DNA of 64,000 bases from Myxococcota bacterium. Lineage in GTDB: Bacteria; Myxococcota_A; UBA796; UBA9615; JAKLKC01. Each line of letters begins with the position of its first letter. Within the stretch, counting starts at the first letter, position 1. A program made the position numbers and the translations under genes. Shown here in pieces: positions 5,480-15,845 of the stretch. The DNA is taken from positions 1-64,000 of the forward strand of contig JAKLKC010000036.1 in NCBI GenBank assembly GCA_023150875.1, in the 5' to 3' direction. The notes beneath the pieces were generated by a model. It saw only the letters and a list, made by a program, of their open reading frames with translations, was not told the origin of the DNA and made no database searches.

Positions 5480-5508
5480 TGACGGGGGGAGGGCGGGGGC
5501 AGTACGAT
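5480..5508 (+). promoter_or_regulatory. Possible promoter upstream of the solitary methyltransferase
   Basis: TGACGG (5480-5485), a 17-nt spacer and TACGAT (5503-5508). The -35 is weak and the leader to GTG 5628 would be over 100 nt, so this is a tentative call. Confidence 0.3.
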
Positions 5509-5627
5509 GGCCGGGTCCCCCGCCCCCGCGGAGGGCGCCGATCCCCCACCCGACGGAGCCTCCCCTGCCCACCGGCCCCCCCCAGGACCCGCGGCGAGCG
5601 GGAGACGCGCCGGATCCCGACGAGGCG

Positions 5628-7529
5628 GTGGACCGCGCTGTGGAGGCTGGGCTTCCCGCGGCGGGACGCCGCGCGCGGGGGCAGCACTTCACGGCCGCGG
5701 CGGCGGTAGACCTGGTCCTCGCGCTGGCCCGGCTCCGCCCCGGGCTCCGGGTGCTGGACCCCGCCGCGGGGGCGGGCGCCTTCCTGGCGGGGGCGGCGCG
5801 GCGGGCGGGGGCCCTCTCGGGCGCCTGTGCCAGCCTGACGGGGGTGGAGGTCGATCCCGTGCCCGCGGCGGCGGCCCGGGAGCGGCTGGCCGGCGCCGGG
5901 TGCCCGGTGGACCTCCGCCTCGGGGACCTGTTCGACCCCTCGGTCCGGCCGGGCGGCCCCTTCGACGTCGTCGCGGGCAACCCCCCCTACGTCCGCCAGG
6001 AGGCCCTCTCCCCGGGGCGCAAGGCCGATCTCCAGGCGGAGGTCGCTCGAGCCCTCGGCCCCGGCGCCCCGCGGGTCGACGGGAGGGCGGACCTGCACCT
6101 CTACTTCTGGTTCGCGTGCGCGCCCCTGCTGGCCCCCGGGGGTCGGCTGGCCCTGCTGGCCTCCAGCGCGTGGCTGGACGCCGCTTACGGCGAGTCCCTC
6201 CAGCGCCTGCTGCTGGACCGCTTCGCCGTAGAGTGGGTGGTGGAGTCCGCGGCCGAGCCGTGGTTCGACGCCGCCCGGGTGCGGACCGCCGCCGTGGTGG
6301 CCCGGCGTGAGGACGACGCCGGGGCGAGGGCCGCCGCCCGGGTCCGCTTCGTCCGCTTCGACCGCCCCCTCGCCGAGCTGCTCCCCCTCCCCTCTCCCGG
6401 GGACCCCTTCCGCCGGGTCCGGGCCGCCGACGCCCTGGTGGAGCGGCTGCAAGCCCTGAGTCCCCCCGAGGGGATCGCCGTCCGGGAGGTCCCCCAGCGG
6501 GACCTGCGCAGCGGAGAGGGGAAGCACCGGGGCGGCAAGTGGGGGGTCCCCCTGCGTGCCCCGGACCTCCACGACGAGCTGCGGCGGGCCCTGGGCCCCC
6601 GCGCCGTCCCCCTGGGCTGGATCGCCGACGTGAGTTTCGGCCTGAAGAGCGGCGCCGACGACTTCTTCTTCGTCCGGGACCTGGGCCCCGAAGACGGCGC
6701 GCCCCACCTGCGGCGGATCCGGTCCGGGGACGGCACCGAGCACCGGGTCGAGGCCCGCTTCCTCGCGCCCCTGGCGTTCAACCTGATGGAGGTGGACCGC
6801 CCCCTGATCCGGCCCGGGGCCCTCCCCCGCCGCGTGCTGGTCCTGCCGGGGACGGGGGACCTCCCCCCCCACGCCGCCGCCTACGTGGCCTGGGGCGAAC
6901 GGGAGGGGAGGGCCTTCCACCGGCGCAGCTCCGTCCGGGGACGCCCCCGCTGGTACGCCCTGGCGCCCCGTCGCGCCGGGGGGGTGCTGTGGGCCAAGAT
7001 CCAGCAGTACCGCCACCTCGCCCCCCTCAACCCCGCGGGGACCGTGGCCTCCTGCAACTTCTACGACGTCGCCCCCCGGGGGGGCCGGGACGCCCTCCTG
7101 CTGGCCGCCGTGCTCAACGCCCACCCCCAGGTCCTGTCCAAGCACGGCGCGGGGCGCACCCGCAACGAGGGGGTCCTCAAGACCGAGGTGTCCGACGCCT
7201 CGCGCATGTGGACCATCGACCCCGCCGGCTTCTCGCCGGGGACGGCGGCCCGGGTCCGAGAGTCCTTCGCGTCGGTGCTGGCCCGCCCGTCGGGCACCGT
7301 GCCGGAGGAGTGCGAGCGCGAGGACCGCCGCGCCCTGGACCTGGCGGTCCTGGAGGGGGCCGGCCTGCCCCCCGCCCGCGCCCGGGACCTGCTGGCGCGC
7401 CTCCACGAAGAGATCCGGGGGCTCTACGTCCGCGAGCGGGAGATGGAGGTCCGGTCGGTGGCCCGCCGGACCCGCGTCGGGCCGGACCGGACGGCCCCAA
7501 CCCTGGCCGCGCCTGGGACCGGCGCCTAG
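5628..7529 (+). CDS. N6-adenine DNA methyltransferase (TaqI/Eco57I-like), solitary
   Basis: About 633 residues from GTG 5628. It has the gamma-class amino-methyltransferase order: motif X-like RGQHFT near residue 18, SAM-binding motif I VLDPAAGAGAFL near 42-53, an acidic residue in GVEVDP, and catalytic NPPY at about 118-121. A long C-terminal target-recognition region follows (residues 270-610), of the TaqI_C type. It should methylate adenine N6 in a specific DNA site. No endonuclease domain or neighbouring restriction gene is visible, so it is either an orphan regulator or a relic of a restriction system. The start is uncertain: there is no in-frame ATG, and GTG 5628 or 5640 are the best candidates. 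The lipoprotein gene follows after 11 bases. Confidence 0.82.
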   Translation: MDRAVEAGLPAAGRRARGQHFTAAAAVDLVLALARLRPGLRVLDPAAGAGAFLAGAARRAGALSGACASLTGVEVDPVPAAAARERLAGAGCPVDLRLGDLFDPSVRPGGPFDVVAGNPPYVRQEALSPGRKADLQAEVARALGPGAPRVDGRADLHLYFWFACAPLLAPGGRLALLASSAWLDAAYGESLQRLLLDRFAVEWVVESAAEPWFDAARVRTAAVVARREDDAGARAAARVRFVRFDRPLAELLPLPSPGDPFRRVRAADALVERLQALSPPEGIAVREVPQRDLRSGEGKHRGGKWGVPLRAPDLHDELRRALGPRAVPLGWIADVSFGLKSGADDFFFVRDLGPEDGAPHLRRIRSGDGTEHRVEARFLAPLAFNLMEVDRPLIRPGALPRRVLVLPGTGDLPPHAAAYVAWGEREGRAFHRRSSVRGRPRWYALAPRRAGGVLWAKIQQYRHLAPLNPAGTVASCNFYDVAPRGGRDALLLAAVLNAHPQVLSKHGAGRTRNEGVLKTEVSDASRMWTIDPAGFSPGTAARVRESFASVLARPSGTVPEECEREDRRALDLAVLEGAGLPPARARDLLARLHEEIRGLYVREREMEVRSVARRTRVGPDRTAPTLAAPGTGA

Positions 7530-8884: not shown

Positions 8885-8948
8885 TGGCGTGACTCCGGGG
8901 TCGGACGAGCCGTCGGCCCGCCCCTCGCCGCCGATCCGCGCTGGCGGC

Positions 8949-8977
8949 TTCGCAGGGCCTGCGGGAGCCTGTAGGAT
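8949..8977 (+). promoter_or_regulatory. Promoter upstream of the FG-GAP lipoprotein gene
   Basis: TTCGCA (8949-8954), a 17-nt spacer and TAGGAT (8972-8977). It is the counterpart of the promoter at 13067-13095: its -10 ends 165 bases before the relic start at 9142, exactly as the -10 at 13095 is 165 bases before the TTG at 13260. Confidence 0.5.
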
Positions 8978-9205
8978 CCAATCCTCGGTCGCTGGAACGC
9001 GGGTTCCAGGAGATCCGCCCCGGGGCGTCGGGCGACCCTCCGGTGCGGTTCCCCATCTCGGCTCCGCCAACCTGTCCACGGACCGGAGCGAGCCCACCGC
9101 GGGATGTCCGGAGCGGGCCGCGGCGCCCGGCGGGGAGTCGAATGGGCAAGGACTGGCCCCAATGCCACGTGCCAACATCCTCCCACGGGGTGGACGTCCC
9201 CGAGC
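8949..9205 (+). repeat. Diverged copy A of the XamI-like gene promoter, leader and first codons
   Basis: It aligns with 13067-13323 at a constant offset of 4,118 bases at both ends, with small compensating indels between. The best block is 9094-9161 against 13212-13279, where about 53 of 68 ungapped positions agree by eye. The translated starts also align without gaps (KD.P early, VD at codons 17-18). Copy A is followed by the FG-GAP gene instead of an endonuclease. Confidence 0.65.
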
Positions 9206-9210
9206 CCGCC

Positions 9211-12200
9211 ATGTCGGGGGCCTACTTCCGTTCCGGGAACCCGGCACCCCTGGCACTCCTCCTGGTCCTCCTCGCGGGACTCGCGAACGGGTGCGGGCCA
9301 TCCACCGCTCCCACCCCACCGGAAGACGACGACACCGTCCCCACCGACGACGATTCGGCCGGACACGACGACGATTCGACGCCACCGGACGACGACTCGC
9401 ACTCCGGGGACGACGACACGACGCCGGACGACGACACGAGCCCGTCCGACGCCGACGGAGACGGTTACCCCTCGCCCGAGGACTGCGACGACTCCAACCC
9501 CGCCATCCACCCGGGCGCGCCCGACGCCTGCGACGGCATCGCGGACACCGACTGCGACGGCGAGCCCGACCCCCGGGAGCACGACGGCGACGGCGACGGG
9601 GTCAGCGAGTGCCAGGAGGACTGCGAGGACGACGATCCGGCCATCCACCCCGGAGCGGAAGAGATCTGCGACGACCGGGACAACGACTGCGACCTGACCA
9701 TCGACGAGGGCTTCGACCCCTGGCGGGACGACGATGGAGACGGCTGGGCCCCCTGCGTCGGCGACTGCGACGACGCCGATCCGGCGAGGAGTCCGGCGGC
9801 GCCGGAGGCCTGCGACGGGATCGACCAGGACTGCGACGGCCTGTTCGACGAGGACTTCGACGTCGACCGAGACGGGTTCACCACCTGCGCCGGCGACTGC
9901 GACGACACCGATCCCACCGTGCACCGGGCCATGCCCGAGGCGTGCGACGGCCGGGACCAGGACTGCGACGGAACGGCCGGGGACGAGGAGGTGGACGCCG
10001 ACCGCGACGGCGCCACCCCCTGCACCGGTGACTGCGACGACACCACGTTCCTGGTGGGTCCGGGCCTGGGGGACACCTGCAACGACGCGCGAGACTCGGA
10101 CTGCGACCCGGCGACGTGCGCCTGGCGTCTCGAGGGTCACCTGGACGAGGGCACGGAGATCCTGCTGACGACTTCCGGCGACCTGGACCGGCTGGGCACG
10201 CGGCTGGTCACCCCCGGGGACCTCACGGGGGACGGGATCCCCGACCTGCTGGTGGGGGCGGCCTCGGGGTACTACCAGGACAGCGTCCCCGGGGAGTGGG
10301 ACTGGTACGAGGGCTCCGGAGCCGCCTACCTGATCGCTGGGCCGATCGACGACTTCCAGAACGTCGCCCTGGAGGCCGTCGCCCACATCGGCGGGTCCGA
10401 CTCCGCAACCTACGGCGACGCCTCCTTCGGCAGCGTGGTGGACGGCGGCGAGGACCTGGACGGGGACGGGCAACCCGACGTGGTCCTCGGCCTGCCCTAC
10501 TACGGGGACGGGGACGCGGGAGCGGTCGCCCTCTACCGCGGACCGCTGAGCGGGCACGTGTACCTGGAGTCGTCCGCCTACGCGCGGGGAGGCGGCGAGG
10601 CCGACGGCGACCACGCCGGCACCGCGGTGGCCATGGGCGGGGACTGGAACGGCGACGGCCACCCGGACCTGGCGGTGGGAGCGCCCCAGGCGGAGTCGGT
10701 CGCCGGTACCAGCGGCGTGGTCTACGTGCTGCTGGGCCCCCTCCCCGCCGGGCCCTTCTCCCTCGCCGACGCGCCGGTGCGCCTGGTCGGGGAGGAGGGA
10801 GACTTCGGTGTGGGCTCCGACCTGGCCTTCGTCGGCGACCTCGACGGGGACGGCCGCGACGAGCTGGCCGTTGCGATGTTCCCAGGGGTGCCGAGCGATC
10901 TGTGCATCGTCGCCGGGGGTGCGACGGGGGAGATCGCCCTGTCCGACGCCCGCGCCCGCTGGGAAGAAGTGGGGTCCACCCTCGCGGTGGGCGACGTGAC
11001 CGGCGACGGCGAGGCGGACCTGGTCGTGGCGGACTGGGAGGTCTACTTGGGCATGGGCACGGTGCGGGTCCTGCCGCTGGCGGCGACCGGAGTCCACGCC
11101 GCCGGCGAGGCAGTGGCCACGATCACCGGAGCCGACGGATCCTTCGGCAGCGGGCTGTCGGCCGGCGGCGACCTGGACGGCGACGGCTGGGGCGACCTGG
11201 CGGTGGGGGCGCTGCTGGCCACCCTCGACGGGCCGGGCGGCGCGGAGTGGTATCCCCACGGTGCTGCGTGGCTCTTCACCGGCCCCCTCGCGGGACCGAT
11301 GGACGAGTCCGACGCCTTCGCATGGGTGGGGACCGAGGTCTACCAGTGGCTGGGCGCCTCGGTGCTGGTCGCCGACCTCGACGGCGACGGCCAGGACGAC
11401 TGGACGGTGGGGGCTCCTGGCTACGACGTCCAGGACCTGGAGGAGGTGAGGGACTACTCCGACGGCCGGATCTGGGTGGCGCGCGGCGGCCCGCCGGGAT
11501 GTACGCTGGAGCCGGAAGTACCCGCGACCGACGCCTGGCTCGACTCCACGCTGCCCTCGTCCTTCCACTGGCGCGGGGACTGCGACACGTACCGGCTCGC
11601 GTTCACGGCGGACCGATACGAGGGGACCACCCGGGTGTACACGGACTGGATCCCGGACCACCACATCCAGCCCGCGGCCAGCGTCTTGGAGCCCGCGTGG
11701 GAGGCGGCGTACGAGTTCTTCTCCGGGCAGTCCCCGATCTGGTGGCGGGTGGAGGGACGGAACGCGGACGGCCCCCCCTCCGCCGGGCCGTGGAGGCAGC
11801 TCCGGACCGAGCCGGGACGGGCGTTCAGCGACGGCGAGGCGGCGTTCGTCCCCGCACCGGGGGAGAGGGCGCGGGCCGCGGGCCCCGCGGGCGACCTCGA
11901 CGGGGACGGGTGGCGCGACGTGGCCGTCCGGGTGTCCTCCGAGAGTGGGGGTGCCGACGACCCGGGCGCGCTCTACGTCGTCTCCGGACCCGAGGCGGCG
12001 ACGATCTCGCTGGAGAACGCCGAGGCCCGAGTCCACGGGACCGAGACGCACTCGAATGTGGGCCAAGGGGCCGACGGCACCAGCGACCTGGACGGCGACG
12101 GGCAGGCGGACCTCGTGGTGGCGGGGGACGACGCGGCGTGGGTATTCCTCGGGCCGGTGGTGGGGGACCTGTCCGTCGACGATGCCGACTGGGCCTTCTC

Positions 12201-13005
12201 CTTCACCGGGATCGGCTACTCCCTGGCCTCCGCGGGCGACCTGGACGGCGACGGGACCGGCGACGTCGTGATCCCGGGCTACGAGGGGGGCTGGCTGGCC
12301 TTCGGCCCCTTCGGCACCGGGACCGAGGTCGTGCTCACCGTCGCCGGGAGCCCTGGCGCCCTGCTCGCCCCCGCCGGGGACGTGAACGGCGACGGGGCCG
12401 CGGACCTGTTGATGGGCGACCCGGACGCGGGGGGTGGCGACGGCGCGGTCTGCGTCTTCTACGGGCCCTTCGCCGCCGCCCCCGACCTCGCCACCGCCAT
12501 GGACTGCGCGGTCGGCTCCGGAGGGGAGGAGGCCGGCACCGAGGTCCTCGGCCCCGGCGACGTGGACGGCGACGGCTTCGACGACCTGCTGGTCCGCGCG
12601 CCGAACCGCGATGACGGCGTCTGCATCGGGGCGGTCCAGGTGGTCCACGGTCCGGTGCTCGGCGTCGTCCCCCTGTCGGCGGGAGTCCCGCTGCTCTGCG
12701 GCGGCGGCGACTGGCACTCGCCCCGCTTCGGGCCCTGGCGGATCGGCGACGTCGATGGGGACGGGCGCGCGGAGGTCCTGGCCTACATCGAGGTCGAGGA
12801 ATACGGCCAGGACTACCTGCGGAACTTCCTGTTCTTCGGTCCCGACGGGTCCCGAGTCACCGAGATGTGGGGCTCGCCTTCGGTCGCGGGCACCGGCGAC
12901 GTGGACTCGGACGGGAGGGACGACGTGCTCGCCTACGCTTGGGGCACCGTCGTCGAACCCGGCGAGGAGGGGGCCGCCTTCCTGCACACCCGGCTCGGGG
13001 AGTGA
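9211..13005 (+). CDS. Large lipoprotein with Asp-rich linker, MopE-like Cys repeats and FG-GAP propeller
   Basis: 1,264 residues from ATG 9211. The signal ends in the lipobox LANGC (Cys 28), so the protein is probably anchored to the outer membrane or cell surface. Residues 38-90 form an acidic linker with DDD/DDDS repeats. Residues 90-300 carry five or six CDG.DQDCDG / GDCDD units like those of the metal-binding MopE protein and myxobacterial surface proteins. The rest consists of FG-GAP/VCBS units such as GDLDGDGWGDLAVGA, which make an integrin-alpha-like calcium-binding beta-propeller. An adhesion or binding role is inferred. The start was chosen for its signal peptide; the frame is open upstream to 9043 and includes the relic of the XamI-like gene start. 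Confidence 0.85.
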   Translation: MSGAYFRSGNPAPLALLLVLLAGLANGCGPSTAPTPPEDDDTVPTDDDSAGHDDDSTPPDDDSHSGDDDTTPDDDTSPSDADGDGYPSPEDCDDSNPAIHPGAPDACDGIADTDCDGEPDPREHDGDGDGVSECQEDCEDDDPAIHPGAEEICDDRDNDCDLTIDEGFDPWRDDDGDGWAPCVGDCDDADPARSPAAPEACDGIDQDCDGLFDEDFDVDRDGFTTCAGDCDDTDPTVHRAMPEACDGRDQDCDGTAGDEEVDADRDGATPCTGDCDDTTFLVGPGLGDTCNDARDSDCDPATCAWRLEGHLDEGTEILLTTSGDLDRLGTRLVTPGDLTGDGIPDLLVGAASGYYQDSVPGEWDWYEGSGAAYLIAGPIDDFQNVALEAVAHIGGSDSATYGDASFGSVVDGGEDLDGDGQPDVVLGLPYYGDGDAGAVALYRGPLSGHVYLESSAYARGGGEADGDHAGTAVAMGGDWNGDGHPDLAVGAPQAESVAGTSGVVYVLLGPLPAGPFSLADAPVRLVGEEGDFGVGSDLAFVGDLDGDGRDELAVAMFPGVPSDLCIVAGGATGEIALSDARARWEEVGSTLAVGDVTGDGEADLVVADWEVYLGMGTVRVLPLAATGVHAAGEAVATITGADGSFGSGLSAGGDLDGDGWGDLAVGALLATLDGPGGAEWYPHGAAWLFTGPLAGPMDESDAFAWVGTEVYQWLGASVLVADLDGDGQDDWTVGAPGYDVQDLEEVRDYSDGRIWVARGGPPGCTLEPEVPATDAWLDSTLPSSFHWRGDCDTYRLAFTADRYEGTTRVYTDWIPDHHIQPAASVLEPAWEAAYEFFSGQSPIWWRVEGRNADGPPSAGPWRQLRTEPGRAFSDGEAAFVPAPGERARAAGPAGDLDGDGWRDVAVRVSSESGGADDPGALYVVSGPEAATISLENAEARVHGTETHSNVGQGADGTSDLDGDGQADLVVAGDDAAWVFLGPVVGDLSVDDADWAFSFTGIGYSLASAGDLDGDGTGDVVIPGYEGGWLAFGPFGTGTEVVLTVAGSPGALLAPAGDVNGDGAADLLMGDPDAGGGDGAVCVFYGPFAAAPDLATAMDCAVGSGGEEAGTEVLGPGDVDGDGFDDLLVRAPNRDDGVCIGAVQVVHGPVLGVVPLSAGVPLLCGGGDWHSPRFGPWRIGDVDGDGRAEVLAYIEVEEYGQDYLRNFLFFGPDGSRVTEMWGSPSVAGTGDVDSDGRDDVLAYAWGTVVEPGEEGAAFLHTRLGE

Positions 13006-13066
13006 CGCTGCCCAGGATAGGGACGAGGCGCTCGGCCCCATCCGGCCCGCCAACCCGCCCCACGTC

Positions 13067-13095
13067 TTCGCGGGAGTTCCGGGAGGAGGTAGAAT
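13067..13095 (+). promoter_or_regulatory. Promoter of the XamI-like restriction-modification operon
   Basis: TTCGCG (13067-13072), a 17-nt spacer and TAGAAT (13090-13095). It implies an unusually long leader of about 158 nt before TTG 13260. Copy A keeps the same distance. Confidence 0.55.
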
Positions 13096-13323
13096 CCTGC
13101 CGCCGAGGGCCGCGTGGCGCGCTTCCCGAGCGGCACGCCCTTTACTCTCGGGCCGCCCTCCGACGTGGCCCACGACCGCGGCCGCTCAGCCCCTTCCCGA
13201 CGGGGGCGCATTCACAGCGGGCTGTCTGCAATGGGCCTCGGCGCCCGGAGGGAAGTCGATTGAACAAGGACAGGCCGCACATCTGGAAGACCGACGTCGC
13301 GGCGTCCGTGGACCTGTACAACG
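13067..13323 (+). repeat. Copy B of the duplicated promoter-leader-start segment (intact gene)
   Basis: Partner of the diverged segment at 8949-9205. Here it leads into the intact endonuclease gene, so this is probably the parental arrangement. Matching blocks include the -35/-10 pair, a TCGGGC..CCCTCCG block in mid-leader, and the ribosome site with the first 18 codons. Confidence 0.65.
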
Positions 13324-14207
13324 CCTGGTTCATGAAATTCGCGCCGCTGGCCTTCCGCCTGGAACGTGTGAAGACCACCAAGTCCGTCAAGCACCTCTTC
13401 GACATCACCGACGCGCTGACGAAGCTCACCCCCGCGGTTCTGGAAGCGAATCCGGGCATCCTCCCAGCCCTGCGGATGTCGACGTGCCCGCCCATCGCGC
13501 GGGACCGGCTCATAGGCCTGGCGGGAGTGAACAAGAACCTGGTCGGCTGCATGGAGTCGGGCAGGCTCCCGAAGCAGACCCCGGCCTGGGAACTGAACGC
13601 CGACCTGCAGCGGATCTGCGAGAAGCTGGCTCAACTCCTGGACACCGAGATGTTCCCCTGGCTCGCCACGAGGACGCTCCCAGACGCCGTGGCCCTGGAT
13701 CGCACCGCCACCATCCTCGCGGACCGCCTCTGCGGGGCGCAGGCAGACCCCATCGTCCGAAATGCACAGGAGGTGAGGCAGCTCCGCAGGATCGAGGACT
13801 GGCTCGAAGTGCGCGGGTACAGAAAGACGGACCCGTATCCCGCGAGCAACCACCCGAACACCATGCCGCCAGGTACGTTCGCGTTCAGGATGAGCGTTCG
13901 CGCGAAAGCCGACCTCAGTCTCAACATCCCCATCGATGTCGTGGTACAGCCCCGGCAGCTCCGGGCCGACCGGATGCCTCTCCTCATCGAAGCGAAGAGC
14001 GCGGGCGACTTCACCAACGTCAACAAACGGCGCAAGGAGGAGTCCGACAAGATGGGGCACCTCATCGCGCGCTTCGGGAGGGACGTTCCGTTCGTGCTCT
14101 TCCTGTGCGGCTACTTCGACGCGGGCTACCTCGGCTATGAGGCTGCCGAGGGTATCGACTGGGTTTGGGAGCACCGCATCGACGACTTCGCGGAGCTGGG
14201 TCTCTAG
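13260..14207 (+). CDS. XamI-family type II restriction endonuclease
   Basis: 315 residues from a TTG at 13260 with GGAGG about eight bases upstream; the only in-frame ATG near the start lies far upstream in unrelated sequence. Conserved blocks such as WKTDVAASVDLYNAWFMKFAP, LRMSTCPPIARDRLIGLAG and RLCGAQADPIVRNAQE are characteristic of the XamI restriction endonuclease family. A PD-(D/E)XK-like centre is visible: IPIDVVV (Asp ~226) and LLIEAKSAGDF (Glu 244, Lys 246). XamI itself cuts GTCGAC; the same target here is inferred. The gene abuts the methyltransferase gene with no spacing. Base and codon use are less GC-biased than in the neighbours, consistent with transfer. Confidence 0.88.
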   Translation: MNKDRPHIWKTDVAASVDLYNAWFMKFAPLAFRLERVKTTKSVKHLFDITDALTKLTPAVLEANPGILPALRMSTCPPIARDRLIGLAGVNKNLVGCMESGRLPKQTPAWELNADLQRICEKLAQLLDTEMFPWLATRTLPDAVALDRTATILADRLCGAQADPIVRNAQEVRQLRRIEDWLEVRGYRKTDPYPASNHPNTMPPGTFAFRMSVRAKADLSLNIPIDVVVQPRQLRADRMPLLIEAKSAGDFTNVNKRRKEESDKMGHLIARFGRDVPFVLFLCGYFDAGYLGYEAAEGIDWVWEHRIDDFAELGL

Positions 14208-15845
14208 ATGCTGGGCGTCGCCAATGCGGAGTCGAGGCGCCTGGCGCTTCAGGACCGGCTGGACTCCGAGAGGTCCGCGGACGAGCGCAACCGATGGGGA
14301 CAATTCGCGACGCCTCCCGCCCTTGCGGCGGAGGTGGCGAAGGAGGCGTTGAGGCAAGTCGGCGAATCGGGCCCGCTTGACTTCCTGGAGCCGTCGATTG
14401 GCTCCGGCACTTTCTTCTCCGCGCTGCTCTCGCTCACCGGACCGGGACGAGTGCGTTCGGCGACGGGGATCGAACTCGATGAGCGTTTCGCCCAGGCATC
14501 GGGCGGTCTCTGGGAGGAGTTCGGGCTGAAGGTGGTCCAGGGAGACTTCACGCAGCTTCGCCCCGCGCCCGAGGGCGGTGGGGTCGCGAACCTCCTCATC
14601 GCGAACCCGCCCTACGTCCGGCATCACCACCTGGACCGGCTGAACAAGGTCGATCTCCAGGCACGGGCCGCGAAGATCCTTGGGAGGCCAGTGAGCGGAC
14701 TGTCGGGCCTGTACGTGTACTTCATGGTCCTGGCGGACCCCTGGCTCGCGGAGGGAGGGATCGGCGCCTGGCTGATCCCGTCGGAGTGGATGGACGTGAA
14801 CTACGGGGCGGCCCTGCGGTGGTACCTGACCACCCACGTCCAGCTCCTGCGCGTTCATCGCTTCGACGCCGCGGATGTCCAGTTCGGCGACGCGCTGGTC
14901 TCGTCCTCGGTCGTCTTCTACCGGAAGCGGCGGGTCGAACCCGGAGCCCACCTCGCGCAGCTCACGACCGGCTCCATCGAGCGGCCGTCGCGGTGTCGCC
15001 TCGTGAGCGCGCTGGAGCTGTCCGCATCGGGCAAGTGGAGCCACTTCTTCACGAAGACCGTCCGAACGGCGCCGACGCTGGACTCGCCGTCCGTGGACCT
15101 CGGCCGGGTCCTGGAGGTGAAGCGTGGGATCGCCACGGGGGGCAACCGCTTCTTCATCCGCCCGCGGACGGAGTTCACCGACCTCGGGATCCCGGATCGG
15201 TTCCTCAGGCCCATCGTCCCGTCTTCTCGCTTCCTGACTGGATCCGTTATCGGCCGGGGGCAGGACGGCTACCCGGACGTCCCGTCGCCGCTGGCCCTGC
15301 TCGACTGCGACCTTCCCGAGGAGCGGGTGCGGACCCACCACCCCGCCCTCTGGTCGTACTTCGAGTCTCCGGCCGGTCAGGAGGTCCGCCGAGGATACCT
15401 GACGAGTGGCAGGAAGCCCTGGTACTCCCAGGAGCACCGGCCCGCCGCCCCCGTGCTCGTCACGTACATGGGGAGGGGGCGCAGCGGCGGTAACCCCTTC
15501 CGCTTCTTCTGGAACAGGTCCGACGCGACCGCCACGAACGTGTACTTGATGCTGTTCCCCCGGCGTCCCCTCGCCGAGCTGTTGCAGCGCGATCCGGACG
15601 CGGGCGAGGCCATCGTCGAGTTCCTGGCGGACCGTCCGGCCGAGGAGCTGCTCGGGCACGGGCGCGAATACGGAGGCGGGCTGTTCAAGCTGGAACCCAA
15701 GGAGCTCGGCCGGCTCGACGTCCGCGAACTGCTCGAACGGTTGGGGATCGCTTCGCTCGATCCCCCGACTGTTCGCCGCAAGCGCCAGCTTTCGTTGGCT
15801 TTCGGGGCGGGGGGGCTCGCAGGCGGGCCGGAGGCGGCTCGATGA
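14208..15845 (+). CDS. XamI-type cognate N6-adenine DNA methyltransferase
   Basis: 545 residues; the ATG directly follows the endonuclease stop codon. Motif X GQFATP is at 31-36, motif I FLEPSIGSGTFF near 59-70, the acidic SAM contact in GIELDE near 87-92, and catalytic NPPY at 133-136. A C-terminal recognition domain spans roughly residues 290-500. It should methylate adenine in the site cut by its partner and so protect host DNA. The tight R-then-M order means both proteins come from one message, unlike systems that make the methylase first. It is related in architecture to the solitary methyltransferase at 5.6-7.5 kb, but the two differ in sequence. Confidence 0.9.
   Translation: MLGVANAESRRLALQDRLDSERSADERNRWGQFATPPALAAEVAKEALRQVGESGPLDFLEPSIGSGTFFSALLSLTGPGRVRSATGIELDERFAQASGGLWEEFGLKVVQGDFTQLRPAPEGGGVANLLIANPPYVRHHHLDRLNKVDLQARAAKILGRPVSGLSGLYVYFMVLADPWLAEGGIGAWLIPSEWMDVNYGAALRWYLTTHVQLLRVHRFDAADVQFGDALVSSSVVFYRKRRVEPGAHLAQLTTGSIERPSRCRLVSALELSASGKWSHFFTKTVRTAPTLDSPSVDLGRVLEVKRGIATGGNRFFIRPRTEFTDLGIPDRFLRPIVPSSRFLTGSVIGRGQDGYPDVPSPLALLDCDLPEERVRTHHPALWSYFESPAGQEVRRGYLTSGRKPWYSQEHRPAAPVLVTYMGRGRSGGNPFRFFWNRSDATATNVYLMLFPRRPLAELLQRDPDAGEAIVEFLADRPAEELLGHGREYGGGLFKLEPKELGRLDVRELLERLGIASLDPPTVRRKRQLSLAFGAGGLAGGPEAAR

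What the first reader, a model, noticed from the sequence alone, without database searches (positions are those of the whole stretch)
8949..13323. The 5' region of a XamI-like restriction gene is copied upstream of an FG-GAP protein gene
The promoter, a leader of about 158 nt and the first 18 or so codons of the endonuclease gene (13067-13323) have a diverged copy at 8949-9205. Distances match exactly: -35 to start codon is 193 bases in both, and codon 1 to the VD pair is the same. In copy A the frame runs on into a large surface lipoprotein gene. Either an old second endonuclease gene was replaced by the FG-GAP gene, or the restriction promoter was captured to drive it. The long leader with conserved length may itself be regulatory.
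Basis: seen in the sequence. Interest (0 to 1): 0.72.

Follow-up and report, generated by a model that had tools for sequence, protein, structure and literature searches.

The report
Duplicated start of a restriction gene
The control region and first few codons of a bacterial DNA-cutting defence gene exist in a second, diverged copy 4.1 kb upstream, where they now sit in front of an unrelated surface-protein gene; it is a real but modest example of a gene lying between two copies of a duplicated gene start.

Summary
The duplication is real. Window 8896-9161 and 13013-13279 are homologous at a constant offset of 4118 (148/262 identical without gaps over 8900-9161, about 67% with gaps; none of 61,878 other offsets comes close). 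The promoter-like block and the last 81 nt (75%) are best conserved; the middle is diverged but alignable through a compensating 2-nt indel. Homology enters the XamI-type endonuclease gene but can be shown only to codon 7, not 18. The pair is unique in the 6.9 Mb genome and absent from the other XamI loci and same-class genomes searched. I found no RNA structure, Rfam match or sigma-70 match, so the regulatory leader is unproven. The shared coding bases encode residues kept across the XamI family (D and P of N-x-D-[KR]-P), so copy A most likely derives from an endonuclease start. Best reading: the FG-GAP lipoprotein ORF entered the endonuclease 5' end and the target was duplicated, leaving a truncated start upstream and an intact gene downstream. 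The same architecture, with the R-M unit as the insert, occurs in other XamI loci (199/199-nt duplication in L103, about 327 nt in L058). Duplication followed by replacement remains a rival.

The parts
8896..9161 (+). Copy A: promoter-like block, leader and first 7 codons of a lost or truncated XamI-type endonuclease gene
   Evidence: homology to 13013-13279 at offset 4118; stops at 9161
8949..8984 (+). Promoter-like block of copy A (TTCGCA-N17-TAGGAT)
   Evidence: 23/36 identical; the shared pattern occurs only twice in the genome, even with 3 mismatches. Not a sigma-70 consensus match
9081..9161 (+). Best conserved block of copy A, with SD-like GGGGAG and ATG 9142
   Evidence: 61/81 identical; only two hits above 13 bits in the genome
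9162..9210 (+). Non-homologous spacer, in frame between the truncated endonuclease start and the lipoprotein start
   Evidence: 17/54 identical over 9162-9215; open frame
9211..13005 (+). FG-GAP/MopE lipoprotein gene, lying between the two copies; likely start ATG 9211 (MSGAYFRSGNPAPLALLLVLLAGLANGC)
   Evidence: PF01839 1e-53, PF11617 8e-35; lipoprotein-type N-termini in paralogues L126, L129, L131
13013..13279 (+). Copy B: promoter-like block, leader and first codons of the intact endonuclease gene
13067..13102 (+). Promoter-like block of copy B (TTCGCG-N17-TAGAAT)
13260..14207 (+). XamI-type restriction endonuclease gene (TTG start, SD-like GGAGGGAAG)
   Evidence: PF09572 6.9e-92; N-terminus agrees with other XamI loci
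14208..15845 (+). Cognate N6-adenine methyltransferase gene, starting directly after the endonuclease stop
   Evidence: Eco57I methylase domain; same gene order in L022 and L103

Best explanation
The 5' end of a XamI-type endonuclease gene (promoter-like block, about 158-nt leader, first 7 or more codons) was duplicated, and the FG-GAP lipoprotein ORF lies between the two copies. The most economical route is one insertion with a long (about 265 bp) target duplication: the FG-GAP ORF, with 49 nt of upstream sequence, entered the endonuclease gene near codon 7. That left a truncated endonuclease start upstream (copy A) and regenerated an intact promoter and gene downstream (copy B). Copy A then became the likely promoter, and possibly an in-frame alternative translation start, of the FG-GAP gene, while copy B drives the R-M operon. 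Shown: homology, its extent, its uniqueness, the gene order. Inferred from family conservation: the endonuclease origin of the shared codons. Inferred only: insertion as the route, and promoter activity of either copy.
For: Homology at constant offset, z 8.8. It runs through the start codon into the endonuclease gene (anchored extension score 15, shuffled maximum 8). These bases encode residues conserved in the XamI loci inspected (INADKPHLWK; B LNKDRPHIWK; A MGKDWPQ), so A descends from an endonuclease gene. Only two copies in the genome. The FG-GAP ORF fills almost exactly the space between them. The same architecture (truncated gene start, insert, intact gene) occurs with a 199/199-nt duplication at XamI locus L103, and an R-M unit lies between repeats of about 327 nt at L058. 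R-M insertion with long and variable target duplications is described in the literature (PMC3031569). The 3' block is better conserved than the middle (61/81 against 49/96, Fisher p 0.001), consistent with both translation-initiation regions staying in use.
Against: In the published cases the R-M unit is the insert, not the target. The copies are only about 67% identical, so the event is old and its exact ends are blurred. No empty-site relative was found: the genome is alone in its family among those held, and the one same-class XamI contig (G019) starts about 120 nt upstream of the gene. No insertion machinery was found, and promoter activity is untested.
Confidence: 0.45

Rival explanations
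1. The whole endonuclease gene or R-M unit was tandemly duplicated; the upstream copy then decayed, and all but its promoter and start was replaced by the FG-GAP gene.
For: Copy A has endonuclease codons. A 6-base run at the conserved VD codons, at the same offset, hints at homology past codon 7 (2.3% by chance).
Against: Needs at least two events; the FG-GAP frame 9211-13005 is intact and takes up the whole space, so no further endonuclease or methyltransferase remnant is left there.
Confidence: 0.25
2. Two related R-M units arrived independently at this site; copy A is a remnant of the older one.
For: Copy A (75.6% GC) is as GC-rich as the host window (73.6%), while the endonuclease gene is 64.9%; identity between the copies is low.
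Against: Copy B is itself 72.3% GC. No other XamI locus searched carries this leader, so two independent arrivals with the same leader are unlikely.
Confidence: 0.12
3. The leader is a shared regulatory RNA or operator that couples expression of both genes, and selection maintains it.
For: Equal promoter-to-start length (193) despite about 33% divergence; promoter and 3' blocks better conserved than the middle, though for the promoter block alone the difference from the middle is not significant (p 0.24).
Against: Folding z-scores between about -0.3 and +1, no Rfam match, no further copies in the genome. Conservation just upstream of a start codon is expected from translation initiation alone.
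Confidence: 0.1
4. The similarity is chance in GC-rich sequence.
For: GC-rich DNA gives frequent short matches.
Against: Far outside shuffled and offset controls.
Confidence: 0.01

Closest known systems
Insertion with long target duplication of R-M systems (Nobusato et al. 2000 and Furuta et al. 2010, as cited in PMC3031569)
   Same: Insert flanked by long direct repeats; one flank holds a truncated gene end, the other the intact gene, as seen in XamI locus L103
   Different: Here the R-M gene is the target and an FG-GAP lipoprotein gene is the insert; repeats are about 67% identical; no empty-site relative
Promoter capture by segmental duplication
   Same: A resident promoter and gene start copied in front of another gene
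   Different: Expression of the FG-GAP gene from copy A is untested
XamI-type Type II R-M systems (PF09572 endonuclease plus Eco57I-like N6 methyltransferase)
   Same: Endonuclease followed by methyltransferase, and the N-terminal motif
   Different: None of the other XamI loci searched has this leader or a copy of it

Membership tests
Insertion with long target duplication | Insert bounded by long direct repeats | tested here: met
   about 265-bp repeats bound the FG-GAP ORF
Insertion with long target duplication | Repeats are copies of one target; one side truncated, the other intact | tested here: met
   Copy A can be followed only to endonuclease codon 7, copy B continues into the intact gene
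Insertion with long target duplication | Empty site with a single target copy in a close relative | not testable with these tools
   The genome is alone in its family among those held; the nearest XamI contig (G019) ends about 120 nt upstream of the gene
Insertion with long target duplication | The inserted unit is an R-M system (published cases) | tested here: not met
   No copy of the endonuclease 5' region lies downstream of the window's R-M unit (downstream score 28, null level); the unit between the repeats is the FG-GAP gene
XamI restriction endonuclease (PF09572) | Profile match over the domain | tested here: met
   E 6.9e-92, profile 3-256 of 256
XamI restriction endonuclease (PF09572) | Cleavage activity and recognition site | not testable with these tools
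   Needs a biochemical assay
Known structured leader RNA | Rfam match or unusually stable fold | tested here: not met

The most novel reading that the evidence does not exclude
The conserved-length leader of an R-M endonuclease gene is a functional regulatory module that was copied, putting a large surface lipoprotein under the same control as a defence system.
Probability: 0.1. Interest if true: 0.65.

Novelty: new member of a known kind. Interest (0 to 1): 0.36.

Why it matters
It is a concrete case in which a restriction gene's 5' end was duplicated around another gene, so that one promoter type may drive both a defence operon and a surface lipoprotein. The comparison also shows that several XamI R-M units sit between long direct repeats, which makes the insertion-with-long-target-duplication route testable in this family.

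Tried and rejected
Third copy in the genome: BLAST, profile and promoter pattern found none. The weak C163 hit beside the closest FG-GAP paralogue lies inside another coding frame on the opposite strand and is taken as chance. Weak class-level hits (at most 21 bits); the five inspected lie in long open frames. Plasmids, phages and viral contigs: nothing. Conserved small ORF in the leader: the ATG 13231 frame of copy B is not conserved in A; by hand count, mismatches in the 3' block are not clearly concentrated at third codon positions (8 of 20). Synteny: the upstream 446-aa protein has no clear orthologue in 24 relatives. R-M unit as the insert: no copy follows the methyltransferase gene.

Full report
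OBSERVATION. A local alignment of 8890-9260 with 13008-13380 scores 67 (match 2, mismatch -3); the best of 500 dinucleotide-shuffled pairs scores 33 and the best of about 1000 random window pairs 48. Without gaps at offset 4118, 148 of 262 positions of 8900-9161 agree, and none of 61,878 other offsets reaches this (maximum 113). By part: promoter-like block 8949-8984 23/36, middle 39/96 (49/96 when shifted by 2, that is, a compensating 2-nt indel pair), 3' block 61/81, and after 9161 only 17/54, which is background. With gaps the whole stretch is 67% identical over 263 aligned columns. Upstream, homology reaches about 8903 by anchored extension and about 8896 in the gapped alignment, close to the stop codons of the preceding genes (8884 and 13005). 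The distance from the -35-like motif to the start codon is 193 in both. The claim of 18 shared codons is not supported: homology is shown to codon 7, and the shared VD codons are a 6-base run seen at 2.3% of other offsets.

WHAT THE PARTS ARE. 13260-14207 is a XamI endonuclease gene (PF09572, E 6.9e-92) followed directly by an Eco57I-type methyltransferase gene; 9211-13005 is a MopE/FG-GAP protein gene whose N-terminus from ATG 9211 looks like a lipoprotein signal, as in paralogues L126, L129 and L131. ATG 9142, aligned with the endonuclease TTG start, is in the same frame, so a 23-residue extension with endonuclease-derived codons is possible; ATG 9142 has an SD-like GGGGAG, while ATG 9211 has no obvious SD (read from the sequence).

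DIRECTION. In the N-termini of the 44 XamI loci printed the prevailing sequence around the start is INADKPHLWK. Copy B reads LNKDRPHIWK and copy A MGKDWPQCH. Because the shared bases encode D and P, conserved across the family, copy A most likely comes from an endonuclease gene, rather than the endonuclease having borrowed the FG-GAP leader (inference).

HOW COMMON. A sequence model of the 3' block finds only these two copies in the genome (91 and 86 bits; next 12.8), and the promoter pattern occurs only twice even with 3 mismatches. Among 81 other XamI loci (835 kb) the best hit is 18 bits, among 70 other same-class genomes 21 bits, and the five class-level hits I inspected lie in long open frames. 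Plasmids, phages and viral contigs gave nothing.

MECHANISM. The order is copy A, FG-GAP ORF, copy B, R-M operon. One insertion of the FG-GAP ORF into the endonuclease 5' end with a duplicated target explains it in a single step. The same architecture exists with the R-M unit as the insert: at L103 a perfect 199-nt duplication leaves a truncated copy of the next gene's start (MSHAPPDPPGIYIIAEAG) upstream and the intact gene downstream, and at L058 about 327 nt is duplicated; shorter, less perfect repeats flank L095 (59 bp) and L105 (55 bp). Of 52 XamI loci compared, five show such repeats next to the R-M unit, and one of these (L047) looks like a MITE pair rather than a target duplication. Insertion with long, variable target duplication is a described behaviour of R-M systems (PMC3031569). 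The difference, that the R-M gene is the target here, lowers the membership claim. Duplication followed by replacement cannot be excluded.

REGULATION. Both promoter-like blocks are conserved, but a sigma-70 scan finds no consensus match, leader folds are no more stable than shuffles, and no Rfam family matches. The better conservation of the 3' block (p 0.001 against the middle) fits selection on translation initiation at both starts. A shared regulatory leader is possible but unproven.

VERDICT. A real, unique, old duplication of a restriction gene's 5' end around an unrelated gene; interesting as a possible case of promoter reuse, ordinary in kind.

Noticed in passing
L103 5479-5677 and 8673-8871: A XamI R-M unit lies between perfect 199-nt direct repeats that duplicate the start of the following gene (NeuB-like by eye): it fits insertion with long target duplication.
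   Followed up: partly
L058 5548-5874 and 8672-8994: A XamI R-M unit is flanked by direct repeats of about 327 nt, lying within a threonine-synthase-like gene (identified by eye).
   Followed up: partly
L047 5723-5874 and 8545-8686: A XamI R-M unit is flanked by two MITE-like elements of about 150 nt with inverted ends (CAGCAATTCTCATTTTG).
   Followed up: no
window 5502-7529: A second Eco57I-type adenine methyltransferase gene lies 1.4 kb upstream of copy A, 33% identical over 189 aa to the XamI-linked one.
   Followed up: partly
G000 whole genome: 169 matches to the FG-GAP/MopE protein at E up to 1e-20: a very large family of related surface proteins in this genome.
   Followed up: no
window 13231-13263: A 10-codon ORF (MGLGARREVD) ends in a TGA that overlaps the endonuclease TTG start; it is not conserved in copy A.
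   Followed up: partly
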